DNA of 64,000 nt from Halobacteriovorax sp. (GCA_002720865.1 PBIO01000020.1:62001-126000); one strand, 5' to 3'; shown: positions 31,873-53,438, counted from the stretch's first letter. Numbers and translations: made by a program. Notes: a model not told the origin generated them from the sequence alone.

Positions 31873-34275
31873 CTAGAGGCGGTTATCTTTAACCGCCTCT
31901 TTATATCTATTTGAAATGATCTTAAAGAGATCCATAGACTTATCAAACCAAATTTCTCTACCAAGTCCCTTTGGACCAATTTTGACAGCCTTTTGACTTC
32001 CTTTGCGATTTGCGAGCTTTTGACGCTCACTCATATGATTGAACTCAAGTACCGCATCATATTCCTTCTTTTGAGCAGCACTTAATTTATCAACCGGAAA
32101 CTGTCCGGCCAAAGCTAAATTTACATTCACATAGAAGTCCTCGTCAAAGACGCCACGGTCATTTTTCTTACCTTCAAAGGTTAAAACTTTATTTGCTCCG
32201 ACAGCACTTCCATTAGCTCCACCGAAATTAGAGCCGCCATAAGAAGCAAAATTTGTATTTATACTATTCTTTTTAGATCTATTCGAATCAAGCTTAAGCC
32301 CATTGCCTCCACTAACCCTACAATTAGCTCCCTTACAATCAGCAACATTGCCATAGCCCATTCTATTTTTAATCTCTGAGCTTCCTCGATCTTTCTGACC
32401 AACAAATTTCCCAATCTGACCGTAATCAACCCCACCTTTTCGGTTCCTAAGCGCTCCATTACCGATCAAGCTTGATTGGTTTAAAAAACGTCTTTGTTTA
32501 TCATCTAAAGAAAGCGCTTTAAGTCCTGCTTTCTCCACTACAGAAATGATTTGTTTTCTCGCGGCAATATTTTGAACTAAGTTAGTTCTCATCAATTTAG
32601 CAACTGAATCACAAGGGTTTGGCGTAGGTGGAATTGATTTATCAGTGATGTCTACTAAATGATTAAGATATAGTTTTAAATGCTTTTTCCCCATATCTCG
32701 ACCTGCAACATATGATCTACAGTCATTTAGTATTGAGTTTCTATTTGGCATTGCCGCTTGTATGGAATTGAGCTCCCTTACTTTAGCCATTTGAAATTCA
32801 CTACGTTCTGCGGCCATATTGGCTTTTAAAGTCGTGGCATTTTTTTGAACCGTTGCCACTCCAAATTGTAGATTATTCTGATTCTTTTTTACCTCTTCAG
32901 CTTGCTTACTCGTAATCTCCTTATAATCTTTTGCTTGTGTTTCTTTTTGGGCGGCCTCTCCTTCTAAGGATAGATCTAGTGCCTTAACCCCTTCAAGGCA
33001 CTTATTATAATCCTGAGCTTGGGAGCACTTATACTTGCAACAAACGGTATTATCTTTTGAGCAAACTTCCTTTGGCTCCTCTAAGCCCTCCATATCAAAG
33101 TCTGTATACTGACTCATCCTAGCTAGAGCTAAACACTGCTTATTAGAATTATAATTAGCAATTCCTTTTGATTTGGCAAGTGCATCGGTTGCCATAGGTT
33201 GCTCTTCTAAATGTTTTTCAAGGGCCTTATAAGTACCGATAAAATATTTAGCTGGTTCTCCATTTGGCTTTTTTGCCTCAGCAACAACTTGAGACCAAGG
33301 GACGGAGGATCTATTCTTACAATCCTCAGCTTCTTTAGCAAAACAGCTTTTAGAAAGCTCTTCACTAAAAGTGTTTTCATTATTTTCATCTTTTTCGGGA
33401 TCATAGTCTTTCATTTCAGTCACAGCTGGTATGGCAGCATCGGTTCCTAAATCAGAAAACCCACCCCCAGCAAAATCAATCGGCCCACTTGGGTCCGGAA
33501 CATCATTTAGTTCAGAAATTTGGTCAAAGCCAGTATAGTTCGGGTCAGTTTCTGGACCAGGATCGTAATTAGTACCTGGAACTCCATTAATATCAGCAGA
33601 TGTGACATGCCCGCTTCCCCCTAAAAATGGATAATAATCATGATCTTTTCCATCAGCAGAATAAATAAGTGTACCTGGAATAAGTAAGTTTTTTACTGGC
33701 ACATACCTCTCCGGGTCTAAAGACAAACAACCTAAAGAAGTCCCTGCAAGACCAGCTCCGACATTCTTACTTTTATGGATCAAAATTTCTCTATTTTGTA
33801 CTTGGCCATTTACTCCAGGTTCTAATCCAATAAGAGCTCTATAAGGACCTACTGTATCTCCAGTTCCAGTTCCTCCGGTTTTTAAAAAGCCTCTACTACT
33901 TTTATAACTTTGATTGGTATTACTAAAGAGTTCAGCTGGGCTCCAACCAGGACCTGAGTTTTTCCCATGAGCCACCCATTCTTCCCTTACCATTTTAGGG
34001 TTTGGACCAATCTGAAAAATATAAAATCTTTTGTTATCTGACTTAGTACTATAATTTGCTATGGCCATAAGATTATGACCTGGAATTTTTTCATTTTTTT
34101 TATAGTAAAACCAACCCTTAACTGCCGTTTCAAAATCCTTCTTTCTTACTTCGCCATTTTTAAAAATACTGGAATACCAGCTATCGATCGTGTCATTAAG
34201 AAACTGTTCATCTGTAAGTTCGGGAGTAGCATTTGCACACAGGCTGAATAGAAGACTAAGTATAAGGATTTTCAT
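31873..34275 (-). CDS. L,D-transpeptidase-like (YkuD_2) exported protein with long C-terminal extension
   Basis: An 800-residue exported protein. After a signal peptide (SLCANA) a catalytic domain resembling YkuD_2 murein L,D-transpeptidases spans about residues 30-215: WVAHGKNSG, ELFSNTNQSYKSSRGFLKTGG, GLEPGVNGQVQNREILIHKS (H167) and the active-site TSLGCLSLD (Cys183). Such enzymes crosslink or edit peptidoglycan. The remaining 585 residues are unusual: an acidic linker, a CCKYKCSQAQ cluster, coiled-coil helices (430-510) and a glycine/asparagine-rich stretch (650-690). ATG 34275 is preferred; no Shine-Dalgarno is present, but TGCTAAAAT ends 8 bases upstream. A role in predator or prey wall modification is inference. 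Confidence 0.75.
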   Translation of the reverse strand: MKILILSLLFSLCANATPELTDEQFLNDTIDSWYSSIFKNGEVRKKDFETAVKGWFYYKKNEKIPGHNLMAIANYSTKSDNKRFYIFQIGPNPKMVREEWVAHGKNSGPGWSPAELFSNTNQSYKSSRGFLKTGGTGTGDTVGPYRALIGLEPGVNGQVQNREILIHKSKNVGAGLAGTSLGCLSLDPERYVPVKNLLIPGTLIYSADGKDHDYYPFLGGSGHVTSADINGVPGTNYDPGPETDPNYTGFDQISELNDVPDPSGPIDFAGGGFSDLGTDAAIPAVTEMKDYDPEKDENNENTFSEELSKSCFAKEAEDCKNRSSVPWSQVVAEAKKPNGEPAKYFIGTYKALEKHLEEQPMATDALAKSKGIANYNSNKQCLALARMSQYTDFDMEGLEEPKEVCSKDNTVCCKYKCSQAQDYNKCLEGVKALDLSLEGEAAQKETQAKDYKEITSKQAEEVKKNQNNLQFGVATVQKNATTLKANMAAERSEFQMAKVRELNSIQAAMPNRNSILNDCRSYVAGRDMGKKHLKLYLNHLVDITDKSIPPTPNPCDSVAKLMRTNLVQNIAARKQIISVVEKAGLKALSLDDKQRRFLNQSSLIGNGALRNRKGGVDYGQIGKFVGQKDRGSSEIKNRMGYGNVADCKGANCRVSGGNGLKLDSNRSKKNSINTNFASYGGSNFGGANGSAVGANKVLTFEGKKNDRGVFDEDFYVNVNLALAGQFPVDKLSAAQKKEYDAVLEFNHMSERQKLANRKGSQKAVKIGPKGLGREIWFDKSMDLFKIISNRYKEAVKDNRL
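31875..31900 (+). terminator. Terminator embedded in the 3' end of the convergent gene
   Basis: AGAGGCGGTTA (31875-31885) pairs with TAACCGCCTCT (31890-31900), then TTATAT. The arms overlap the last codons and stop of the minus-strand gene ending at 31873. Confidence 0.8.
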
Positions 34276-34283
34276 TTGAATCA

Positions 34284-34292
34284 ATTTTAGCA
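34284..34292 (-). promoter_or_regulatory. Extended -10 (TGCTAAAAT) of the transpeptidase-like gene
   Basis: TGCTAAAAT on the minus strand ends 8 bases before ATG 34275, with no ribosome-binding site, consistent with leaderless transcription. Confidence 0.4.
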
Positions 34293-34404
34293 TGTATAAA
34301 ATGAAAAACGCGGGCTTAACGAATTTGCCTCTTAAGTGGTTGATTTAGCTCGAGTAAATTCATCAAATTTAGTGATTTTGGTGGCAATCAAATGAGGCAT
34401 TTTA

Positions 34405-41362: not shown

Positions 41363-43633
41363 TTGTTTAAATTTTTTGCGAAGCATTCACTACTTTCATT
41401 TATTCTATTGTTGATTCCAACGATCTGCTCCTTTTTCTTTTTAGATCAAATGAGCTCTGACCCAAGCTTTGATCGACTCTTAATTAAAAATGACCCCGAG
41501 AAGATCTTCTATAAAGCCGTTACGGATGAGTTTGGAGAGGATAATTCAGCTCTAGTGTATTTCGAAGGACCAGAAATTCTTAAGAGAGAAAACCTAATTA
41601 AAATTAGGCAATTTGTTTGGGATATTGAAGAGCTTGAGGAAGTTAAGCAAGTAGATTCTCTTTTTACAACTCCTCATTTTGTTGGTGAAGATGGACTACT
41701 CTCAACGATCCCTGCCCTTGAAGATCTCCCTGAGGATCAAGCTGAGATAGATAGAATCATTCAATCAACGGTTGAAAATCCTTTAATAGCAACCAGACTT
41801 ATAGCCAAAGATAAATCCTCAATTGTCATCAATATTCAGCTAGATAGTAGCAAGAGGGCCCTCAAGGAAATTGCTCTTCTTATCAATACCAAACTCGCAA
41901 GTATTGATCCTAAAGTTACTCAAAAATTTCAAACGGGAATACCTTCAATCGAGCTTTTTACCTTTGGAGAAATGACCCAAAGTCAAAAAAAGCTTCTTCC
42001 TTTTGTTATTTTGGCAATTTCTTTCTTTGTATTTCTCGGTACGAGGTCCATTCATGCGGCCCTAATCCCTTGCATCGTCGTTTTCCTCGGCATTTTATGG
42101 ACTGGCGCTTGTATGGTTTTTCTTAAGATTCCGGTACAACTGCTAGTTAGCTGTGTTCCGGCTATTACTTTTATTCTCGCTACTACTGAAATCGTTCATA
42201 TTATGACGGCCTACAAAGAGCAGCTCTTAAAAGGAAATTCTAAAGCTATGGCCATAAGTGAAGCGATGGATGAGGTAGCGCTACCGATCTCTTTAACGGC
42301 CTTAACGACGACTCTTGGATTTGGAGCAATTTGTGTTAATAAAATCATCATGCTTCAAGAATTTGGCATCGTCAGTGCCATTGCACTTGTGTCTAGTTTT
42401 ATTATCACGGTTCTATATACTCCCTTACATATTAAGCTCTTCGCTTCTTCTAAGATAAAAAAGAGTAAGGAAGCCTCTGATCTAATTATTTTTAAGAAAA
42501 TCTCAAAAAAATTCTTTAATTTGAAAAATTATAAAAAGTTTGTTTTCACATCACTATTTGTTTATATGGCCTTTAATCTTTATCAATCTAAATTTGTTTT
42601 AACTGATAACGATTCTATCAATTTAATAAAGAAAACTGCTGAGCCAAGAATAAATCTAGATAAGTTTGAAGAGCATTTTGGAGGAATTAAATCAGTATTT
42701 TTAATTCTGGAGTTAAGCGAAAGTAATTTCAAAGACCCTAAATATTTAAAAGTCCTTTTTGAACTTGAAAGAGAGCTTAATAATTTTCCTGAGTTTTATG
42801 ATGCAGAATCTTTTGGCGGGCTTATGGCCCATATAAACAATCAGATGATCACTTCAGTAAGTGGTGTGGATCAGTATCAAACTCCCGCTTCAAAGCAATT
42901 GGTGGCTCAGTACCTTCTTTCATTGACGAGAGATGATTATGAGAAGTACGTCTCAGCCGACTTTAAGAAAGCAAATCTAACGATTAGGCATAGTATCAGC
43001 TCTTCCCACGATCAGGAAAAAGCCATGCTAAAACTACAAAGCTATCTAGAGAAAAGACTAAGCGGCCTACCCATAGGTTTTAAGTTTACAGCTAGGAGTA
43101 TTCTTAATCAAAGAGCTGGTAAAACAATCATTAAGGCTCAAACCCAATCCATTTTAATGATGATCATTATCATTTTTATTTTAATGTCCATTTTATTTAA
43201 AGACCTTCGAATGGGGCTTGCAGCTATCCCTCCTAACTTTCTTCCAATCTTAGGTCTTTTTGGCTCCATGGGATTTCTTGGAATCCCTCTTAATATTGGC
43301 TCCTGTATTGTAGCGGCTATTACAGTGGGAATTGCTGTAGACGATACAATACATTTTTTCACGAGATTTAAAGAAAACTTAGAAAAGACAAAACCTGCTG
43401 AGCTCGCTGTTAAGGAAACACTAGACGAGGAGTCCGCTCCAATCGTAATTACCTCAATTTCTTTATCTATTGGGTTTTCAATTCTAATGCTCTCTCAGAT
43501 GGTTCCCTTAAACCAATTTGGTCTCCTATCCGCCATAGTAATCTTACTCGCAATGTTAGCGGATTTGGTTGTTACGCCAGCGATTATGACGATTATGGGA
43601 CGTATCTACACCGATAAAAATAGTCGGAATTAG
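41363..43633 (+). CDS. RND superfamily exporter (MMPL/patched-like)
   Basis: A 756-residue inner-membrane protein with two similar halves, each a large periplasmic loop plus six helices. SSD-like segments include ITFILATTEIVHIMTAYKEQ and AITVGIAVDDTIHFFTRFKENL, the latter typical of MMPL proteins. The start is TTG 41363, needed because the first transmembrane helix lies at residues 10-28; only a weak TAGG is upstream. It is followed by a LolA-like protein and a predicted barrel with a FecR-like domain, so the three probably form a cell-envelope lipid export system like the HpnN/MMPL-associated type. Confidence 0.87.
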   Translation: MFKFFAKHSLLSFILLLIPTICSFFFLDQMSSDPSFDRLLIKNDPEKIFYKAVTDEFGEDNSALVYFEGPEILKRENLIKIRQFVWDIEELEEVKQVDSLFTTPHFVGEDGLLSTIPALEDLPEDQAEIDRIIQSTVENPLIATRLIAKDKSSIVINIQLDSSKRALKEIALLINTKLASIDPKVTQKFQTGIPSIELFTFGEMTQSQKKLLPFVILAISFFVFLGTRSIHAALIPCIVVFLGILWTGACMVFLKIPVQLLVSCVPAITFILATTEIVHIMTAYKEQLLKGNSKAMAISEAMDEVALPISLTALTTTLGFGAICVNKIIMLQEFGIVSAIALVSSFIITVLYTPLHIKLFASSKIKKSKEASDLIIFKKISKKFFNLKNYKKFVFTSLFVYMAFNLYQSKFVLTDNDSINLIKKTAEPRINLDKFEEHFGGIKSVFLILELSESNFKDPKYLKVLFELERELNNFPEFYDAESFGGLMAHINNQMITSVSGVDQYQTPASKQLVAQYLLSLTRDDYEKYVSADFKKANLTIRHSISSSHDQEKAMLKLQSYLEKRLSGLPIGFKFTARSILNQRAGKTIIKAQTQSILMMIIIIFILMSILFKDLRMGLAAIPPNFLPILGLFGSMGFLGIPLNIGSCIVAAITVGIAVDDTIHFFTRFKENLEKTKPAELAVKETLDEESAPIVITSISLSIGFSILMLSQMVPLNQFGLLSAIVILLAMLADLVVTPAIMTIMGRIYTDKNSRN

Positions 43634-43714: not shown

Positions 43715-44506
43715 ATGAAGATCGCAATTTTAGTTTTTCTCTTTTCCATCTCTTTTTCCGTACAATCGGCCTGCTCTAAGGACGGAAAATCTATAATGGA
43801 GCTACAAGAAAAAAAGCAAAAAGTTAAGTTTGAATCAGAAGAACAGTCAGTCGTTCTCTTGGACGTAAAATCTAAACAAAAAGAAAAAAGAACCATGAAA
43901 CATTATGCTGTGAAAGCCTCTGACGGTTCTGAAAAAGCTCTCTTAACCTTTGTTGAGCCCGCTGATATTAAAGGCTCTGCTGTTTTAAACTGGCGAGATA
44001 AATCAAGTGATGATCAATGGGTCTATCTTCCAGCATTGAAAAAACTTCAAAGAATTGCCAGTGGAAGTAAAAGAAAATATTTTATGGGCACAGACTTCAC
44101 CTTTGCTGACCTAGAGGGTGAAGTTCTAAAAAACTATAACTACACTTGTGAAAAGGAAGAAGCTTGCCCTTCAAAAAAAGGTAAATGCTTTTTAGTCACC
44201 GCAACTCCAAAAAACAAAGACATAAAAAGAACTACTGGTTATACCAAAAGGGTTCTATGGGTAGAAACCAACCGCTACGTTACTCACAAAATTGAATATC
44301 ATAATTTGAAAGGTAAGCATTTTAAAACTGCAGAGTATTTAAAATGGAAAAAAGAAGGAAAGGTATGGCGTCCGAACCTAGCCGTCATGAGCCGTGAAGG
44401 AAAGCATAAGACTTATATTAAAGTTAAAAAGAGAACACTTAATACTGAAATAAAAGACGTGGTATTTTCAAAAAGATATATCGAAAAAGAAATGCATATT
44501 AAATAA
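43715..44506 (+). CDS. LolA-like outer-membrane lipoprotein-sorting protein
   Basis: A 263-residue periplasmic protein (signal SVQSA) with the LolA/LppX-like pattern of the outer membrane lipoprotein-sorting protein family: ALLTFVEPADIKGSAVLNW, DDQWVYLPALKKLQRIASGSKRKYFMGTDFTFADLE, TKRVLWVETNRYVTHKIEY, and RPNLAVMSREGKHKTYIKVKKRTLNTEIKDVVF. These typically sit next to RND exporters and may carry lipids across the periplasm. It lies 81 bases after the RND gene and 14 bases before the barrel gene. Confidence 0.86.
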   Translation: MKIAILVFLFSISFSVQSACSKDGKSIMELQEKKQKVKFESEEQSVVLLDVKSKQKEKRTMKHYAVKASDGSEKALLTFVEPADIKGSAVLNWRDKSSDDQWVYLPALKKLQRIASGSKRKYFMGTDFTFADLEGEVLKNYNYTCEKEEACPSKKGKCFLVTATPKNKDIKRTTGYTKRVLWVETNRYVTHKIEYHNLKGKHFKTAEYLKWKKEGKVWRPNLAVMSREGKHKTYIKVKKRTLNTEIKDVVFSKRYIEKEMHIK

Positions 44507-44520
44507 ATGGAATAAATTAT

Positions 44521-46560
44521 TTGAAAGCGGGATATCCCCTCCTCTTCTTTTTTCTAGCAGCTTTTCCTTACTTAGCATTCAGCTATAGTGCGGATGATTC
44601 TTTAATCGGCAAAGTCGCCGCTCTAAAGGGAAAAGTAATCGCCTATAATAATCGCGGTAAAACAATCCAATTTCTCAAAAAGGGTGATCCAATTGCAGGC
44701 AAATTGATGCTTGTGACAAGAGATAAGTCAGGCGTTAGGATTCAGTTTAAAAATGGCGAAAAGCTCATATTAAAATCAAACTCGAAGGTAACGATAAAAG
44801 GTGATTTAATCACCTTAAGAAGAGGACTCTTAAAGTACCATGACCCAAACGGACACTATGAAACCTTTAAGTTTAAATTTTCCAAATTTGACACCGTTTA
44901 TGTTGGTAAAAGTCTTGTCATGGGTAGGACTGGAAAGAAACCATTTATTACGGCCCTTAATGAAACAAAGATTAGAATTAGTCAAAACAACACCTCTAAG
45001 AAAGTAACTAGCGACCTTAGAGTACCAGATATTAGTAAATTTCTAAGTGCCGCGAGAATTCCAAAACCGAATCTTCCAACGAGTACTGTTTCCGACGACT
45101 CTCCTCCAACTGATAGTACCGAAGAAGTAGAAGATATTTTTGGTGATGACCCTGGATTGGATTCAGATGACGAACCTGAAAACTTTCAAGCCAGCGGTCC
45201 CGATGAGAGCAGTACTTCAGAAGTTGAAGATATTTTTGGCGATGGTCCAGATTCCAGCACTACTGAAGTAAAGCCAGCCCCGGAGCTAGTTTTAAAAATG
45301 GATACGGACGGAGAGGAGGAGCTAGTTGATCTTATTGATATCAATTGGAAGATTGGTTTTTATTCAACTTTTTATCTTAGCAAACCTCCAGAAGATAGCA
45401 AAATTGACGATCGTTTCATGCATTTGGACTTCAAACTAAACTTCAACGATAAAATTAATATTTCAGATGAAACAAACTTTTTTCATAGCGGATGGGTTGA
45501 GTTTAGTAACAGAAAAGAGGTAAGAGATGACAACTTTATCTCTATAACTGGAAGAGAGACAAAGAAGCCAATTATCATGATTAACGAATTCTATTGGCTT
45601 AAGTCTATGGATAAGTTTGATATAACATTAGGTAAAAAAATTGTTCGATTAGGAAAAGGGATGCTCGTATCGCCCGTGGATAGAATTTCTCCAAGTGATT
45701 CCATTATCCCTGGAAATTCGGAAAGACTTGGAGCCTTTATCACTTCCTTTGACTATTACTTAGGTAACTCAAAGTTCACCTTTCTTTGGGTTCCTTATCT
45801 TAACACTTCAAAGTCTCCCCACCCACAATCGAGATGGTCCACGAGAACTGATGGAACAAACTTTGATATCACCTCTGTCTTTCCTGAGGGTCTAAGTTGG
45901 AAATCAACTCGCAATATTCTAAAGTGGGAAACCACCTTTAAGGGCTATGATATTTTCTTAGCTGTTTTTAACGGTGCCAACCCAGATCCGGTAATAAAAA
46001 ATAAGATCACGACTGTCCAAAATCGACCTGAGTTTGAAATCAGACAAGAGTTTGTACCAGTTACCAATTTGAGTGGAGGTTTTTCAACAACATTTGGTGG
46101 TCTTGAGCTTCATGGTGAGTACCTCAAACAAAACGCCTCTGAAGGAAAAGATGATAGCTATTCTCAATTCATGGGTGGATTTAGATATTCTTTTGATGAA
46201 TGGCCAAGAAATATAGGGCTCACCCAAATAGACGTCATTATGGAGTATATAAAAGAATCCCTTGACCAAGAGATCAGCTTTCCATTTACCCTTTTCAGCT
46301 CAATCAAATCTAGGCTCTTTAGGGATAATCTGCTGGGCACTTTTAATTTCCAAGTTAGTGAGAAGCTAAGCTATAACTTGGGTTTTAATCTCGATAGGCA
46401 AAACTCTGGAACCGCCTATTTACTAGGTATGGGCTATCGCATGGCAAATTCGGCTCAAATGACTTTTCGTTATGAAAGCTATAGTGGTGAAACCACTTCT
46501 CTTTTTGGTTTATGGGATCATAATGATAATTTGGCTTTTGAATATACCAAGGACTTTTAA
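44521..46560 (+). CDS. FecR-like domain plus predicted outer-membrane barrel
   Basis: A 679-residue exported protein. Residues 30-100 resemble a FecR domain (GKVAALKGKVIAYNNRGKTIQFLKKGD, VRIQFKNGEKLILKSNSKV). An acidic linker (about 180-265) contains the motif EVEDIFGD twice. The C-terminal 400 residues look like an outer-membrane beta-barrel (DUF1302-like; YWLKSMDKFDITLGKKIVRLGKG, SFDYYLGNSKFTFLWVPY) ending in Phe. It starts with TTG 44521 in the operon. FecR-like plus barrel in one chain is unusual. It probably accepts cargo from the RND/LolA partners. Confidence 0.75.
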   Translation: MKAGYPLLFFFLAAFPYLAFSYSADDSLIGKVAALKGKVIAYNNRGKTIQFLKKGDPIAGKLMLVTRDKSGVRIQFKNGEKLILKSNSKVTIKGDLITLRRGLLKYHDPNGHYETFKFKFSKFDTVYVGKSLVMGRTGKKPFITALNETKIRISQNNTSKKVTSDLRVPDISKFLSAARIPKPNLPTSTVSDDSPPTDSTEEVEDIFGDDPGLDSDDEPENFQASGPDESSTSEVEDIFGDGPDSSTTEVKPAPELVLKMDTDGEEELVDLIDINWKIGFYSTFYLSKPPEDSKIDDRFMHLDFKLNFNDKINISDETNFFHSGWVEFSNRKEVRDDNFISITGRETKKPIIMINEFYWLKSMDKFDITLGKKIVRLGKGMLVSPVDRISPSDSIIPGNSERLGAFITSFDYYLGNSKFTFLWVPYLNTSKSPHPQSRWSTRTDGTNFDITSVFPEGLSWKSTRNILKWETTFKGYDIFLAVFNGANPDPVIKNKITTVQNRPEFEIRQEFVPVTNLSGGFSTTFGGLELHGEYLKQNASEGKDDSYSQFMGGFRYSFDEWPRNIGLTQIDVIMEYIKESLDQEISFPFTLFSSIKSRLFRDNLLGTFNFQVSEKLSYNLGFNLDRQNSGTAYLLGMGYRMANSAQMTFRYESYSGETTSLFGLWDHNDNLAFEYTKDF

Positions 46561-49500
46561 TCTTCTTTATTAATCCACTCTTCTTTAAGAGCTACTTTTC
46601 GATAGCGCTTAGAGATGACACCAAAGATATTTTGATTAGGTTTAATCAACATATCTGAAGTTAGCTTTTTTAACTTACTAGAACTTTTCGAATCTCCACT
46701 ATTTAGCAAGTTTTCATTATTTTGAGCTATTCCATTTTGAGCACCCGCATCCACATCATCCTCAAAAAGGTCATTTGGATCAAAAACTTTTTTATCGAAA
46801 AGAAGTGGTTTCCTCCAACTTCCAAGCTTTTTATATTTCGTAATATTTTTAAGTAAATCTTTTTCAAGGGTTGACTCTTCCCTCAGACTTCTTTGGCTCT
46901 CCTCAAAATTAACTCCAACCGCGGAACCCACACCTTTATTCTTTGCATATTTTTTAACAAAAGCTTTATCGAACTTGATTGGTTTTGCTCCAACTTTTCT
47001 TCTCATTTTATTTAACTGCTTAATAGCCTTCTGACTGAACTTAAGTCTTTGTGCTGTTTTTCGTTTATTGCTTCTACTCCAATCATACAAAGAGCGTTTT
47101 CCATTTGAGACACTATTAAAGTTACGATAGATTCCTCTCATACCAGACTCTTTTACAGCTTGAGTAAGAGTTTTCTTAGCCTTTACCTTTTGCTCTTTGG
47201 TGCCCGTCAGTATTACTTTAGGAGGAGCCTGTTTCATACAGGTGTCTTTTTCTCGACAGGAACAACTAGAGTCAACTTTTCCATCCGAGCCCAAACAGGA
47301 ATTTGGTCTCTTTGCACTAGAACTAGATAAAGTTCCTATATTATTTTTAGATTCTCCGGAAGACTTGGTACTACCCGTTCCCCCTCCGGCGATATTCATA
47401 GAGCCTTTAGCACTTCCTCCGGCTCCCCCCATTTTTTCGGCCAAGGTATCTTCTTCATTTCTAATTGTGTTATTATGATACTTATCAAACATCTCAGTAA
47501 TCTCTCTAAGCTTACCTGCTTTATCTCGATTACTTTTAGCGGCTTTAGAGGCTTCTCCTTTTAGACCACCAGCCATTGCCATCATAATCCCACCACCTAC
47601 AACTGAAGCGATACTCCCACCCTTGTTTGCACACACATAAGGATAGCTTGCAAGCTCAATAGCACCCATGCCTGCCGCAGCGGCACCAATTCCCATGATG
47701 TTTCCATAGTTAGAGGATTTTTCATCATAGGCCTGGGCCATCATCTCATAGCCTTTTATTGCAAAGTCAAAGGCCATCCGTTGATACTCCATGCTATTCT
47801 TATCCATAGAGGCTGCCTTAGCTTCAAATTCTGCTTGAAGACCTTTTAATCTTCCTTCCACTTCTTTTGAATGATCAACTTCATTCATAAGGGCCATAAG
47901 TGAGCCAATACCCAATATGGCATTAGAAGCACAACCGTTCCCTGTAACAACTGAAACGAGACTTGTGATCATTCCCGCTGCCGCAGTCATTCCCCCTTTC
48001 TTTGAAAGGCTAGCTAGCTTTTTACCTTCGGCGGCTAGATCCGCTTCAATCCCTTGACCTTCTTCGGCGGCGGATTTTAAATTAGCTAAACATTTTTGTT
48101 TAATTTCTTCAGTGTCTTGATTATGACAATCAAAGTAGAGACCTTTTAATTCTGCTTCTTGTTTTGCCGTTAAACAATCACCGGCCTGACAATTAAAATT
48201 AGTTCCTGCGGGGCAAGTTTTTGGAGCATTACATAACTTGGTACCAATATTATATTCTAGCTCTCCAAGACATTGCTTTTTTTCATCTGCCGGCTTAGCA
48301 TCACATTGAGGCTTTCCTTGTGCATAAGCATCAACTTGCTGCATACAAATATCTTGGGCATTGATATCTGGTTTGCTCTCACAATCTGCAATAGCCTTCT
48401 TATAGCTATTAGCATCCTCTCTTAGACCATCTTTACAGGCCTTAGGATTAGATTCTTTTTCACAGTTTTTAAAATTATCTACAAACTTATTTAGCCTTTC
48501 TAAACACTGAGTTCTAGCGGCGGGGTCAGTTCTTTCCTCACAGCTACTCTTTTCAGCTTTATATCTTTCACTATCTGCTTCGAGCTGGTCACGGCAGGCC
48601 TGATCAGCACAAGCGGCGTAACTCTCAGCTAGTCCATCGACATTTTTACGACATGAATCCTGTAGACCTGGAGTTGGTTCACTATCACAGGCTTTAATCT
48701 CAGCTTCATACTTCGCTCTATTTTTATTTAACTCACCTCTACAGGCTTCATCTTCACAAGCCAGGTAGCTATCCATAAACTTATTTAAACGTTCTTTACA
48801 GCTAGAGGCTTCGCTTCCACCTAGACTTTTACAGCGGGCATCTTCAACCAGATAAGCATCTTTATCTTCCCTTAACTTATCTTTACAATAAGAATCATTC
48901 CCACATTTTTCATACTCAGAGACATATAATTCTAAATTATTTAAGCATCGACTTTTATCTGTACCAGACTCTCCGTTACATCTTTCAACCTCGGCCCGGT
49001 ATTCATCCTTTTCTTTAGAAAGCCTTTCCTTACAGGCCATATCAGAACCACAGGCATCATGTTTAGCAAGGTAAGTCTCTAGGTCTTTTAGACACTTTGA
49101 TTTGGAATCTCCACCCATCGACTCACAACGCTCCACCTCAGCCTTATAGGCATCTTTATCTGCAAAAAGACGATCTTTACAAGTCTGATCTTCCCCGCAA
49201 GCTTCAATTGAGGCCACAAACTTACTTAAGCGATCTAAACATTTTGATTTTTCTGGCTCAGACTGAGCCTCACATTTATTAACTTCTGCTACGTACTGAT
49301 CTCTGTCCTGACGTAGTTTATTTTTACATTGTATATCGTCGCCACATTTCTCAAATTCAGCGACAAATCGCTCTAATTTACCTAGGCATTCTGTTTTTCC
49401 CGCTTCCGGAAGTGCTTCACAGCGATTAAGCTCTGCTAGATACTCATCCCTTTCTCTAAAGAGATCATCTTTACAAGTAACATTACTACCGCAAGCATCT

Positions 49501-52500
49501 AGCCTTGCGACAAACTTAGCGAGTCTAGCAAGGCAAACTGTTTTCTCCTCTCCTGGAAGAGCCTCACAACGATTCTTTTCAGCTAAGTACTCATCTTTCT
49601 CTCTTCTTAAGCGATCTTTACAAGATTGATCTTCACCGCAAGCCTCATGTGCGGCAACATATTTATCTAAGTCAGCCAAGCATGACTTCTTTTCCTCGCC
49701 GCTTTTAGCTTCACAAGCTTCAAGCTGAGCTAAATACTCATCTCTATCCTTAATAAGATTATTTCTACAAACAAGATCCGTTCCACATTTTTCATATGAG
49801 TCGACAAATTTTTGAAGCCTATCAAGACAAGCGGTCTTATCGGGGTCTTGCTTTTCATTACATGAATTAAGCTCAGCTACATACTCATCACGATCTTTTT
49901 TAAGCTGATCTTTACATAATTGGTCATTTCCACAGGCCGTGTACTTTTCAACATAGGCGTTAAGTCGATCCATACAAACTTTCTTCTCGTCTGCAGAGTT
50001 AGCTTCGCATTTTTCAACTTCAGCTAAGTATTCGTTTTTTTCTTTCTTTAGGTTTAGTTTACAGACTTGATCAGAGCCACATTTTTTATAATTCTCTACG
50101 AATGCATTTAATTGATTAACACAAAGCTCTTTATCCGGCTCAACCATTGCATTACAACGTTTTAAATTTTCATTGTACTCATCTTTGTCAGATAAAAGGG
50201 CATCTTTACAAGTTTGGTCAACGCCACAAGCTTCATACTCCTTTAAGAAATTACTAAGCATATAACGACACTGAGCTCTTGCTTCTGTTGTTGCCTTGCC
50301 ATCACATTTTGCCACTTCCGCTTGATAAAGCATTCTATCTTCATTTAGCTTATCCTTACAAACTTGATCACTTCCACAAGCATCAAGCTTTGAGACATAT
50401 TTTTCAAGATTATCTAAACAATTAGAAATTTCTTCACTCGGCTTAGCCTCACAGCTAGCAACTTCATTTTGATAGGCCACTCTATTTGCTTCAAGCTCAT
50501 CTTCACAGCTTGCAACCCCATTACATGCTTTTATTTTTGCAATATAACTTTCAAGATTTGAATGACATTTGCTACTTTCAGTGGCTGGCTTTGAATCGCA
50601 TTTAGCGACCTCTGCTTCATAAGCCTCTTTTTGAGAGAGCAGCTTATCTTTACAGGCCTGATCAGTACAAGATTCATAATTTGCAACAAACTCATCTAAA
50701 TTTTTAATACAGCTTGTTTTTTGAGCTCCTGATTTTGTATTACAGTTCGCCAGGGCATTTTGATAATTCTCTTTATCTGCAAAGAGCTGATCTTCACAGG
50801 TTTTATTTCCGCCGCAGGCCTTTATGCTATCAGCAAACTTATCAACCTTTGCTATACAAGAGTTCTTCTCGGCCGTACTTCCTAAGGCGTCACATTTAGC
50901 GATTTCATTTCGATACTGATCTTTTTGGGCAACAAGCTTATCCTTACAAACTTTATCAGCGCCGCAGGCCTCCACTGAGGCAACAAAATCATCTAGTTGC
51001 TGTATACATTTATCAGCCTGGATAGGATCCGCCTTAGCATCACATTTGGCCTTTTCTGTACGATACTCATCCCTAAAACTAACAAGTTCGTCCCTACAAG
51101 CTAGATCCCCACCACAATTCTCAACGGCCGCAACAAATTTATTCAGTTGACTAAAACAGGTATCTCTAGAGCTACCACTCTTCGCTTCACAAATGGACGC
51201 TTCTGCCTCATAGGCATTCCTATCAGCATCAAGCTTATCTTTACAGGCCTGATCCGATCCACAGGCCTTGTATTTCGTAACAAATTTGTCTAAATTACTA
51301 AAGCAGGTCGTTTTTTCAGATCCCGATTTAGCGTCACAGTTGGCCACTTGGCTTTCATACTCAACCTTATCTTGTCTTAACTTTTCTTCACAAGTGGTGC
51401 TTCCATTACAAGCTTCATAGTTAGCTACATAGTCATTAAGCTGATTAAGACATTTAGATTTTTCTTCACCGGTTTTTAATTCACATTTTGAAAGATAGCT
51501 TGAGTATTCAAATCTTTCTCTATTAAGCTTGTCCTTACAGGCAATATCAGATCCGCATAACTCAAACTTATCCACGAAAGCTTCAAGCCTAGTTATACAA
51601 GTTTCTTTTTCTGTAGGACCTTTAATATCACATTTTGCTTTTTCAGCTATATAATCATTTCTCTGTTTTTCTAGCTCAGACTTACAGGCGGCATCATCCT
51701 TACAAGCATCATATTTGGCGACGTATTTATCCAACCTTTCTAAACAGAGCTCTTTTTCAGCAAAGGCCTGAGCCTCACACTTACCAACTTCTTTTTGATA
51801 GTTTTCTTTATCTGTCATTAAGGCAGTTTTACAATTTTCATCGCTACCGCAGGCCTTATACTTCCCAAAAAACCTATCTATATCATCAAAGCATCTAACT
51901 CTTTCATTACCTTCTTTTTTCTCACAAAGAGCCACTTCACCTTGGTAAGTATCTTTATCAGCTAAAAGTTTATCCTTGCAGGCATTGTCACCGTTACAAC
52001 CATCGACAAGCTCAACAAAGGCGTCCAGGTTTTGTAAACAACGACTTCTCTCTTCTGTCGTAAATTTCGTTTCGCAATTACTCACTTCACTGGTGTATTG
52101 AGCTCTCTCATTTTCAAGTTGCTCTCTACACATAAGATCGTTTCCACAAGCGTCAACCTTATCAACGTATTTTTCAAGATTATCTAAACAGCGATTCTTA
52201 TCTGTTAAAACAGTTTTAGCATTACAGCTATCTCTTGCGGTGATATAGGAATCTTTATCTCCTAAAAGTCTTTGCTCACAAATTGATGTCGTACACGAAA
52301 CAAGCTTATCAACGAACCCATCTAGAGTATCGATACATTTACTATTTCCGTTACATTTCCTAGCCTCGGTAGTGTACTCACTTAATTTTTTATCAAGATC
52401 GTCAGTACATTCTTGTCTACCTTGTGGAGTAGCAATGGCATTACAGTTTAAGGTTCCACCCTGAAGCCAGCTATTTTGTTTTGAACTAAAACAGAACTCA

Positions 52501-52661
52501 TACTTACAACTCCAGGTCTTACCTGTTACAGCGGAACTTGAAGTACAGATTGTTTTTTCATTAGCTAGAGAACTACCTGCGGGATAAGTACAAGCAAAAG
52601 AATTAGCGGACCAAAGGCCGAAGCTAAATGCTAGCAATAGGTAGGTAAGCCAGTTTTTCAA
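46557..52661 (-). CDS. Giant exported protein with about 27 four-cysteine helical repeats
   Basis: A 2034-residue protein. A signal peptide ends near NSFA (residue 23). Residues about 121-1450 are tandem 48-51-residue repeats of consensus Cx5Cx17Cx10C, such as ACGSDxxCKDKL..DKDEYxAEVxxCE.....KxxCLxxLxxFVxxY; I count 26 well-formed units plus a degenerate first one. Each looks like a helix pair whose cysteines could staple both ends. Residues 1480-1720 hold two hydrophobic, Gly/Ala-rich segments (SLVSVVTGNGC, GIGAAAAGMGA), then a basic Ser/Gly-rich C-terminus. No known family recognised. It ends in a 4-bp stop overlap with the barrel gene. Confidence 0.85.
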   Translation of the reverse strand: MKNWLTYLLLAFSFGLWSANSFACTYPAGSSLANEKTICTSSSAVTGKTWSCKYEFCFSSKQNSWLQGGTLNCNAIATPQGRQECTDDLDKKLSEYTTEARKCNGNSKCIDTLDGFVDKLVSCTTSICEQRLLGDKDSYITARDSCNAKTVLTDKNRCLDNLEKYVDKVDACGNDLMCREQLENERAQYTSEVSNCETKFTTEERSRCLQNLDAFVELVDGCNGDNACKDKLLADKDTYQGEVALCEKKEGNERVRCFDDIDRFFGKYKACGSDENCKTALMTDKENYQKEVGKCEAQAFAEKELCLERLDKYVAKYDACKDDAACKSELEKQRNDYIAEKAKCDIKGPTEKETCITRLEAFVDKFELCGSDIACKDKLNRERFEYSSYLSKCELKTGEEKSKCLNQLNDYVANYEACNGSTTCEEKLRQDKVEYESQVANCDAKSGSEKTTCFSNLDKFVTKYKACGSDQACKDKLDADRNAYEAEASICEAKSGSSRDTCFSQLNKFVAAVENCGGDLACRDELVSFRDEYRTEKAKCDAKADPIQADKCIQQLDDFVASVEACGADKVCKDKLVAQKDQYRNEIAKCDALGSTAEKNSCIAKVDKFADSIKACGGNKTCEDQLFADKENYQNALANCNTKSGAQKTSCIKNLDEFVANYESCTDQACKDKLLSQKEAYEAEVAKCDSKPATESSKCHSNLESYIAKIKACNGVASCEDELEANRVAYQNEVASCEAKPSEEISNCLDNLEKYVSKLDACGSDQVCKDKLNEDRMLYQAEVAKCDGKATTEARAQCRYMLSNFLKEYEACGVDQTCKDALLSDKDEYNENLKRCNAMVEPDKELCVNQLNAFVENYKKCGSDQVCKLNLKKEKNEYLAEVEKCEANSADEKKVCMDRLNAYVEKYTACGNDQLCKDQLKKDRDEYVAELNSCNEKQDPDKTACLDRLQKFVDSYEKCGTDLVCRNNLIKDRDEYLAQLEACEAKSGEEKKSCLADLDKYVAAHEACGEDQSCKDRLRREKDEYLAEKNRCEALPGEEKTVCLARLAKFVARLDACGSNVTCKDDLFRERDEYLAELNRCEALPEAGKTECLGKLERFVAEFEKCGDDIQCKNKLRQDRDQYVAEVNKCEAQSEPEKSKCLDRLSKFVASIEACGEDQTCKDRLFADKDAYKAEVERCESMGGDSKSKCLKDLETYLAKHDACGSDMACKERLSKEKDEYRAEVERCNGESGTDKSRCLNNLELYVSEYEKCGNDSYCKDKLREDKDAYLVEDARCKSLGGSEASSCKERLNKFMDSYLACEDEACRGELNKNRAKYEAEIKACDSEPTPGLQDSCRKNVDGLAESYAACADQACRDQLEADSERYKAEKSSCEERTDPAARTQCLERLNKFVDNFKNCEKESNPKACKDGLREDANSYKKAIADCESKPDINAQDICMQQVDAYAQGKPQCDAKPADEKKQCLGELEYNIGTKLCNAPKTCPAGTNFNCQAGDCLTAKQEAELKGLYFDCHNQDTEEIKQKCLANLKSAAEEGQGIEADLAAEGKKLASLSKKGGMTAAAGMITSLVSVVTGNGCASNAILGIGSLMALMNEVDHSKEVEGRLKGLQAEFEAKAASMDKNSMEYQRMAFDFAIKGYEMMAQAYDEKSSNYGNIMGIGAAAAGMGAIELASYPYVCANKGGSIASVVGGGIMMAMAGGLKGEASKAAKSNRDKAGKLREITEMFDKYHNNTIRNEEDTLAEKMGGAGGSAKGSMNIAGGGTGSTKSSGESKNNIGTLSSSSAKRPNSCLGSDGKVDSSCSCREKDTCMKQAPPKVILTGTKEQKVKAKKTLTQAVKESGMRGIYRNFNSVSNGKRSLYDWSRSNKRKTAQRLKFSQKAIKQLNKMRRKVGAKPIKFDKAFVKKYAKNKGVGSAVGVNFEESQRSLREESTLEKDLLKNITKYKKLGSWRKPLLFDKKVFDPNDLFEDDVDAGAQNGIAQNNENLLNSGDSKSSSKLKKLTSDMLIKPNQNIFGVISKRYRKVALKEEWINKED
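48310..52300 (-). repeat. Tandem coding repeat array, unit about 147 bp
   Basis: The array encodes about 27 units of roughly 49 residues with four cysteines each. Divergence between neighbours is considerable at both protein and DNA level, so the array is old and probably under purifying selection on the cysteines. Some units have 48 or 50-53 residues, always in multiples of three bases. Confidence 0.85.
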
Positions 52662-52880
52662 AGGTATCCCTTCTTTGTAATCAAAATACGTACGTTATGG
52701 ATTTATTATCGGTTTATTCTGAGAAAATCCGTAACCTATTTTTAGTTAAAGTGAGTATTTTCGATAACTTAACCTAGTATTTCACTTCGTTTCCAAGGAT
52801 TTTGGCTGCCTACAATTTAGGCCTTTGCTCCTTTTTGCCTCCCTTTAAGTAAAGCTAACAAGTTGAAATATAATAAGCCT

Positions 52881-53438
52881 ATGAAGAAACTGATTTTGCT
52901 CACCTCCACAATACTGGCCCTAAGTTCTTGTGTTATGTCTCCAGAAACTTATGACCCCGCTACTGACGATGGAACCTATACGGGAACCGCCACAGTTTAT
53001 GATGGAGAAGGAACAGACCCGGACTTTGTTCAAAGAGTTTGCCCCACGATCACGGCCAGCCTAACGGTCTCTAACGGAAATATTTCTTATAATCTTTCAG
53101 ATGATTTCAATGGCTATATCCATGATGGCGATGTTCAAATTACCCATACTGGAACATCCGTCGTTAGCTTAAACAATCAGTTTTCTATTTCCCACGACTA
53201 TAGTCCAGGGGCCAATGTTCAATCAAATGATATTGCACTTTTAAAAGTTTGCGATACTAGCTTTGGACCACCAAGGGACCTATCGAACCTTAGCACTCTT
53301 ACAATTAATTTTGGAAAGACAGGCTTTACTGGAGAATTTGGTTTTAGTCAGGCCAGAGCTTCTATCTTTTACGGCGTCACCTGCTCTGATGGAAAGTTCC
53401 TTCCCTTATGCTTTTACTTCTGGGAAGGAACTAAGTAG
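52881..53438 (+). CDS. Lipoprotein of unknown function
   Basis: A 185-residue lipoprotein with lipobox LSSC (Cys17). I use ATG 52881, since a TTG at 52863 only adds six residues before the signal peptide. The mature part is all-beta: TYTGTATVYDGEG, ITASLTVSNGNISYNL, VQITHTGTSVVSLNNQFSISH, and a C-terminal TINFGKTGFTGEFGFS, with four cysteines (RVCPTI, KVCDTS, TCSDG, LCFYF). It looks like a small immunoglobulin- or lipocalin-like domain. It stands alone between the giant repeat gene and the VWA gene. Confidence 0.68.
   Translation: MKKLILLTSTILALSSCVMSPETYDPATDDGTYTGTATVYDGEGTDPDFVQRVCPTITASLTVSNGNISYNLSDDFNGYIHDGDVQITHTGTSVVSLNNQFSISHDYSPGANVQSNDIALLKVCDTSFGPPRDLSNLSTLTINFGKTGFTGEFGFSQARASIFYGVTCSDGKFLPLCFYFWEGTK

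What the first reader, a model, noticed from the sequence alone, without database searches (positions are those of the whole stretch)
46557..52661. A 2034-residue exported protein built from about 27 four-cysteine helix-pair repeats
The repeat Cx5Cx17Cx10C recurs about every 49 residues through residues 121-1450 with near-invariant cysteines, while the sequence between them drifts. Placing C3 and C4 around the turn and C2 with the following C1 at the other end suggests each unit is an antiparallel helix pair stapled at both ends, making a long disulfide-rigid rod. The array is followed by hydrophobic Gly/Ala segments that may sit in a membrane. I recognise no family; the vertebrate GLG1 Cys repeat is the only loose analogue. 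A rod spanning or projecting from the envelope, for contact or attachment, is the most attractive idea.
Basis: partly seen in the sequence, partly recalled or inferred. Interest (0 to 1): 0.75.

Follow-up and report, generated by a model that had tools for sequence, protein, structure and literature searches.

The report
Fixed-length cysteine-stapled helical envelope rod
A family of bacteria that includes Bacteriovorax-type predators makes giant exported proteins from 26-27 copies of a cysteine-stapled helix pair, and the array length and the partner genes of a hydrophobe-export pump stay the same across genera, which suggests a fixed-length strut in the cell envelope that no database has named.

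Summary
Window 46557-52661 (minus strand) encodes a 2034-aa signal-peptide protein with 130 Cys and 27 four-Cys units. It matches nothing in Pfam, NCBIfam, PHROGs or PDB sequences. AlphaFold2 on six units gives two confident helices per unit (mean pLDDT 86). (1) Array length is fixed: 27 units (1325-1328 aa) in three genera and 26 in a fourth, although protein identity falls to 35%. (2) The array is linked to other genes. A divergent lipoprotein occurs only in genomes with 4-Cys arrays. One outer-membrane-barrel orthologue occurs in exactly the 15 genomes with a 4-Cys or related 6-Cys array (6 of 48 genera) and in no other, mostly beside LolA-like and MMPL (RND) genes. (3) The C-terminal module and a ~26-residue tail ([IL][FW]xxI[ST]xRY) are near-universal in this family (122 of 129 genomes) and tag about 10 proteins per genome, including L,D-transpeptidases. 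Best explanation: a disulfide-stapled, fixed-length envelope strut that works with an AmeABCD-like hydrophobe exporter and evolved from a single-unit ancestor. Topology, cargo and disulfide pairing are inferred. Not GLG1-like, not Sel1-like by Pfam.

The parts
46557..52661 (-). gene of the 2034-aa exported Cys-array protein
   Evidence: full-length homologues in 7 further genomes
52593..52661 (-). signal peptide, residues 1-23 (mature protein would begin at Cys24)
   Evidence: sequence LKNWLTYLLLAFSFGLWSANSFA|C; hydrophobic peak
52296..52592 (-). N-terminal cap, residues 24-122, containing a 6-Cys-type unit
   Evidence: Cys spacing 15-13-5-16-12-18; found by a profile built only from 6-Cys arrays
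48306..52295 (-). 27 four-Cys helix-pair units, residues 123-1452
   Evidence: AF2
48090..48305 (-). C-terminal 6-Cys cap, residues 1453-1524, homologous to the single unit of short paralogues
47298..48089 (-). module with two Gly/Ala-rich hydrophobic hairpins (a Cys at each tip) around an amphipathic helix, residues 1525-1788
   Evidence: AF2 of this part is low-confidence (mean pLDDT of whole model 62)
47238..47297 (-). Cx10CxCx5C cluster, residues 1789-1808, invariant in the aligned family
46560..46655 (-). conserved C-terminal tail, residues 2003-2034 (PNQNIFGVISKRYRKVALKEE...)
52863..53438 (+). divergent lipoprotein (lipobox LSSC), present only in genomes with the 4-Cys array
44521..46560 (+). 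outer-membrane beta-barrel-like protein with an N-terminal FecR-like domain; full-length orthologues in exactly the array-bearing genomes
43715..44506 (+). LolA-like periplasmic carrier (PF17131, E=6.8e-49)
41363..43633 (+). MMPL-family RND inner-membrane transporter (PF03176, E=6.1e-25)
31873..34293 (-). unlinked 806-aa L,D-transpeptidase (YkuD_2) carrying the same C-terminal tail
   Evidence: tail E=3.2e-8

Best explanation
The protein is an exported, disulfide-stapled alpha-helical repeat rod of set length. It most likely serves as a strut, spacer or conduit in the cell envelope for a hydrophobe/lipid export route made of an MMPL-type RND pump (inner membrane), a LolA-like carrier (periplasm) and a beta-barrel (outer membrane), together with a dedicated lipoprotein. 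Shown: signal-peptide ORF, 27 units, helix pairs by prediction, constant array length, co-occurrence and mostly adjacency with these genes, C-terminal tail shared with other exported proteins. Inferred: oxidised cysteines, pairing across turns, periplasmic location, rod shape, and that the array sets or spans a distance between layers of the envelope. The module probably arose from single-unit envelope proteins, still present in nearly all relatives, by unit expansion, as a 4-Cys version and a 6-Cys version.
For: Array of 27 units (1325-1328 aa) in genera g1, g34, g55 and 26 units (1278-1284 aa) in g60, although whole-protein identity to the window falls to 36%. 4-Cys arrays occur in 12 of 129 family genomes and the lipoprotein in the same 12 (one, G148, is probably a contaminating contig, so 11). 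Full-length barrel orthologues (E<1e-80) occur in exactly the 11 4-Cys genomes plus the 4 6-Cys-array genomes, and in none of the other 113; at genus level 6 of 6 versus 0 of the rest, 1 in 12 million by chance if genera were independent. MMPL, LolA and barrel flank the array gene in g1, g55 and g60 with the gene order rearranged; LolA and barrel do so beside the 6-Cys arrays; in G035 the trio is on another contig but present. In G028 (g27) fewer Cys units (6) are combined with an array of about 70 decapeptides that scores against DotG/IcmE, a protein described as corresponding to VirB10 of type IV secretion (PMC10432156). AF2: two helices per unit, mean pLDDT 86. AmeABCD, an RND pump + LolA-superfamily protein + outer-membrane DUF1302 protein + second periplasmic protein, exports apolar compounds (PMC6394551).
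Against: No measured localisation, topology or disulfides. The hydrophobic hairpins are weak membrane segments, and their AF2 model is poor. G035 has the trio unlinked. In g33/g27 no MMPL gene was found next to LolA and barrel. The barrel does not hit Pfam's DUF1302, so kinship with AmeA is not shown. pTM 0.61 and no coordinates, so length per unit is unknown. Short paralogues sit beside peptidoglycan enzymes rather than transporters.
Confidence: 0.4

Rival explanations
1. A peptidoglycan-associated scaffold. The array is an expanded version of the family's small envelope proteins, whose job is to place cell-wall enzymes; the transporter link is secondary.
For: Short paralogues with the same C-terminal module have VanY carboxypeptidase and C92 (YiiX-like) genes next door at several loci, and three tail-bearing proteins are themselves YkuD_2 L,D-transpeptidases, one of them in this window.
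Against: The array-bearing members are not next to these enzymes but next to the MMPL/LolA/barrel set; barrel presence tracks arrays exactly.
Confidence: 0.2
2. A surface-exposed or secreted rod for prey contact or delivery (the first reader's idea; in a stronger form, the two hydrophobic hairpins insert into a target membrane).
For: Exported, long, cysteine-rich protein in a family that contains predators (relatives named Halobacteriovorax, Bacteriovoracaceae); two-hairpin layout recalls translocators, with a non-significant phmmer hit to AopB (E=0.21); wall-modifying enzymes share the tail.
Against: No significant translocator match; no secretion machinery found alongside; fixed length and partner genes fit an envelope machine at least as well; the predatory habit of the array-bearing MAGs is not known.
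Confidence: 0.18
3. A cysteine-based reservoir or binder: repeated Cys pairs act in redox buffering, metal binding or binding of small hydrophobic ligands rather than as a rigid rod.
For: 130 Cys; weak structural resemblance to serum albumin domains (Z about 5), which may only be a common arrangement.
Against: Cys flank helix ends at fixed spacings as in stapled helices; no His is conserved in the units; length constancy would not be needed.
Confidence: 0.07

Closest known systems
AmeABCD apolar monoterpene exporter (HAE3-type RND; Castellaniella defragrans, PMC6394551)
   Same: RND/MMPL pump with a LolA-superfamily periplasmic protein and an outer-membrane protein in one cluster
   Different: Ame has no Cys-array protein or this lipoprotein; its barrel is DUF1302 and its LolA is DUF1329, here FecR+barrel and PF17131; AmeC not seen here
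Helicobacter cysteine-rich Hcp / Sel1-like repeat proteins (from own knowledge)
   Same: secreted alpha/alpha repeats with Cys pairs stapling helices
   Different: 36-40-aa repeats of the Sel1/TPR superfamily; here 49 aa with four Cys, and no Sel1 match in Pfam
GLG1 cysteine-rich repeat, PF00839
   Same: repeated four-Cys units
   Different: no match of PF00839 in this genome at E<=10
DotG/IcmE decapeptide repeats (type IVB secretion)
   Same: the G028 homologue carries such repeats N-terminal to its Cys units
   Different: absent from the window protein; 577 bits against a cut-off of 750, driven by repeats only
CHCH (twin CX9C) proteins (own knowledge)
   Same: helix hairpins fixed by Cys at helix ends
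   Different: single hairpins with CX9C; here CX17C and CX13C in 27 tandem units

Membership tests
GLG1 / Cys_rich_FGFR (PF00839) | match to the Pfam model | tested here: not met
   no match at E<=10 in the window's genome; not listed for P0001 at E<=1
Sel1-like / Hcp repeats | match to Sel1 or TPR models in Pfam | tested here: not met
   no Sel1/TPR family among hits at E<=1
Sel1-like / Hcp repeats | shared three-dimensional fold | tested here: inconclusive
   Foldseek best E=0.21; VIA-align best Z 7.7, to designed helical repeats; within the range of common arrangements
CHCH (twin CX9C) | two CX9C motifs per hairpin | tested here: not met
   spacings are Cx17C and Cx13C
AmeABCD-like RND exporter (the neighbourhood) | HAE3/MMPL-type RND pump | tested here: met
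   PF03176 E=6.1e-25; conserved next to the array in g1, g55, g60; membership of the HAE3 lineage itself was not tested with a tree
AmeABCD-like RND exporter (the neighbourhood) | LolA-superfamily periplasmic protein | tested here: met
   PF17131 E=6.8e-49
AmeABCD-like RND exporter (the neighbourhood) | DUF1302 outer-membrane protein | tested here: inconclusive
   barrel-like sequence with weak FecR N-terminus, no DUF1302 hit
AmeABCD-like RND exporter (the neighbourhood) | export of apolar compounds | not testable with these tools
   needs a mutant and transport assay
DotG/IcmE | NCBIfam NF033900 above its cut-off | tested here: not met
   only the G028 homologue hits, 577 of 750 bits, by its repeats
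C-terminal sorting tags of the CTERM kind (the tail) | short conserved motif at the C-terminus of otherwise unrelated exported proteins | tested here: met
   about 50 distinct ORFs of 287-2141 aa, hit always ending 0-26 aa from the C-terminus, with and without the shared module
C-terminal sorting tags of the CTERM kind (the tail) | hydrophobic stretch plus basic end and a dedicated processing enzyme | not tested
   no long hydrophobic stretch is evident in the tail by eye; enzyme not searched; no CTERM model hit in NCBIfam

The most novel reading that the evidence does not exclude
The array is a molecular ruler: a disulfide-stapled rod of fixed unit number that bridges or spaces the layers of the envelope as a structural part of an RND lipid/hydrophobe exporter, anchored through a clade-specific C-terminal tag system that also places cell-wall enzymes in Bacteriovoracaceae.
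Probability: 0.22. Interest if true: 0.85.

Novelty: new variant of a known kind. Interest (0 to 1): 0.64.

Why it matters
Repeat arrays usually change copy number quickly; an array held at 26-27 units across genera whose units have diverged beyond recognition implies strong selection on length, as for a spacer or ruler. It would add a new structural component to the poorly understood MMPL/LolA/barrel exporters. The tail gives a handle on a clade-wide set of exported proteins, including wall enzymes, in a bacterial family that contains predators.

Tried and rejected
GLG1/PF00839 (no match). Plasmid and phage collections (no match to the repeats). PDB by sequence with the protein and with a repeat profile: no significant hit (AopB E=0.21 and EFHC1 E=0.36). 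The weak Pfam hits DUF7387 and UPF0150 are below their cut-offs. First genome-contig scan with the wide alignment failed for lack of conserved stretches; the closer alignment gave 5 named MAG loci. Sliding-window alignments A9 and A11 were discarded because MAFFT slipped register by whole units; the gapless 10-row A12 was used instead. G148 was excluded from the tallies: its matches have the same scores as those of G001, and its neighbouring genes are as close to the window's as G001's. Unit-by-unit orthology between genera could not be shown: co-linear offset 0 scores no better than shifted offsets for G035 and g60, slightly better for G059, clearly for G002, so constancy of number may reflect either no indels with saturated divergence or balanced turnover. 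PDB fold comparison showed only common helical-repeat arrangements. Searches of the held papers for these terms in Bdellovibrio/Bacteriovorax/Halobacteriovorax found no description of this protein or of the tail.

Full report
What is there. The window's reverse strand carries one ORF from 52661 to 46557, 2034 residues, TTG start preceded by AAGGGA. A signal peptide (residues 1-23) is followed by a Cys-rich cap, 27 units of the form Cx5Cx17Cx10Cx13 (26 strict, one with a longer first loop), a second cap, a Gly/Ala-rich hydrophobic module, a Cx10CxCx5C cluster and a conserved tail. The Cys order is not a chance effect: shuffled sequences give 0.12 matches on average and at most 2, against 26. 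The repeats are old: mean 34% identity between equal-length units and no tandem repeat at the DNA level.

Relatives. Whole-genome searches place close homologues in the same genus (88% and 57% identity) and one at about 41% in another genus. Named matches are Halobacteriovorax MAGs and Bacteriovoracales/Bacteriovoracaceae MAGs, so I take the family to be Bacteriovoracaceae. The C-terminal module occurs in 122 of 129 genomes of the family, but among the other families sampled in the phylum only one weak match appears (E=3.7e-4). Most members are short (about 400-900 aa) with a single Cys unit; long arrays are the exception.

Two kinds of arrays. The 4-Cys type occurs in 12 genomes, one of which (G148) looks like contamination by a contig of the G001 species. 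A 6-Cys type, unit about 70 aa, is expanded in G034, G110, G111 and G028 only. In G028 the protein has only 6 Cys units plus about 70 decapeptides of DotG/IcmE type; DotG/IcmE of Legionella has such 30-bp repeats (PMC2639597) and is described as corresponding to VirB10 (PMC10432156).

Constant length. The 4-Cys array has 27 units and spans 1325-1328 aa in the three genomes of g1, in G035 (g34) and in G059 (g55), and 26 units, 1278-1284 aa, in three g60 genomes. Within g1 units are co-linear. Between genera the unit-by-unit signal is mostly lost. The number of units is thus conserved although the sequence of individual units is not.

Partners. Blast clustering of neighbours shows an MMPL-type RND transporter, a LolA-like protein and a FecR+barrel protein beside the array gene in g1, g55 and g60, with the array-lipoprotein pair inverted relative to the trio between genera; LolA and barrel also sit beside the 6-Cys arrays together with PilZ/GAF sigma-54 activators. 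The divergently encoded lipoprotein is found in exactly the 12 genomes that show 4-Cys arrays. The barrel has full-length orthologues in exactly 15 genomes, the 11 reliable 4-Cys and the 4 6-Cys genomes; all other matches are weak hits, nearly all of them to the FecR-like N-terminus. In G035 the trio lies on another contig, so the co-occurrence does not depend on linkage there. Genomes are not independent, but at genus level the barrel match is 6 of 6 against 0 among the other genera.

Structure. AF2 of six units with a ten-row gapless alignment: mean pLDDT 86.3, pTM 0.61, twelve helices, alternating about 22 and 18 aa. Foldseek finds no significant relative in the PDB (best E 0.21); VIA-align's best are designed helical repeats at Z 7.7 and some albumins at Z about 5, within the range of common helical arrangements. 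The C-terminal model is poor outside the repeats (mean pLDDT 62). Coordinates are not given, so Cys distances and rise per unit could not be measured.

Disulfides (inference). Among single-unit homologues several keep C2, C4, C5 and C6 but lack both C1 and C3, and one keeps the C5-C6 equivalent without C3 and C4. This suggests pairs C1-C3, C2-C4 and C5-C6 in the 6-Cys unit. The 4-Cys unit corresponds to C3-C6, leaving C1u-C2u and C3u-C4u, each across a turn. Counting from the 5th Cys (residue 73) to the C-terminal cap, successive Cys pair off without remainder.

The tail. The last ~26 residues match a motif shared by about ten proteins per genome in this family: [DQE]I......[AVS]S[IL][FW].[IV][IL][ST]NRY, R invariant and Y in 40 of 41 aligned tails. 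A 30-column profile finds 12 distinct large ORFs in the window's genome and nothing in two genomes of other families. In about 50 distinct ORFs the hit always ends within 26 aa of the C-terminus. Three carriers are YkuD_2 L,D-transpeptidases, one of them in this window. Short tail-bearing members often have VanY carboxypeptidase or C92 genes next door. This looks like a sorting or docking tag; its enzyme or receptor was not sought.

Mechanism. The best-supported reading is an envelope strut working with an RND/LolA/barrel exporter of the kind described for AmeABCD (PMC6394551). Shown: sequence, repeats, predicted helices, constant length, co-occurrence. Inferred: periplasmic place, rod shape, disulfide state, role in transport. 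A wall-scaffold role and a surface-rod role remain open.

Novelty. The repeat, the module and the tail have no match in the libraries searched, and I found no paper in the held library that describes them. Stapled alpha-alpha repeats and RND/LolA/barrel exporters are known kinds, so I call it a new variant of a known kind.

Noticed in passing
window 31873-34293 (-): An 806-aa YkuD_2 L,D-transpeptidase ends in the same conserved C-terminal tail as the array protein.
   Followed up: yes
L017:5779-11016 (-), genome G028: A homologue of the array protein carries about 70 DotG/IcmE-like decapeptide repeats N-terminal to six 6-Cys units and the same C-terminal module and tail.
   Followed up: partly
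G000 contig C10, 50769-52436 and 120776-122443 (L063, L132): Two same-scoring copies of a 622-aa family member (and of its 828-aa neighbour) lie 70,007 bp apart on a 125,792-bp contig; possible assembly duplication or a large repeat.
   Followed up: no
L129 (G148:C140): A contig of a g9 genome whose array matches score identically to those of G001 and whose neighbouring genes are as close to the window's as G001's; probably contamination of that MAG.
   Followed up: partly
L187, L070, L017, L021, L057: A pair of PilZ/GAF/sigma-54-activator genes is kept next to single-unit members (g3) and next to 6-Cys arrays (g33, g27), suggesting common regulation and descent.
   Followed up: partly
L062, L022, L065, L066, L067, L069, L195: A VanY D-Ala-D-Ala carboxypeptidase-like gene lies directly downstream of short tail-bearing members in several genera.
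   Followed up: partly
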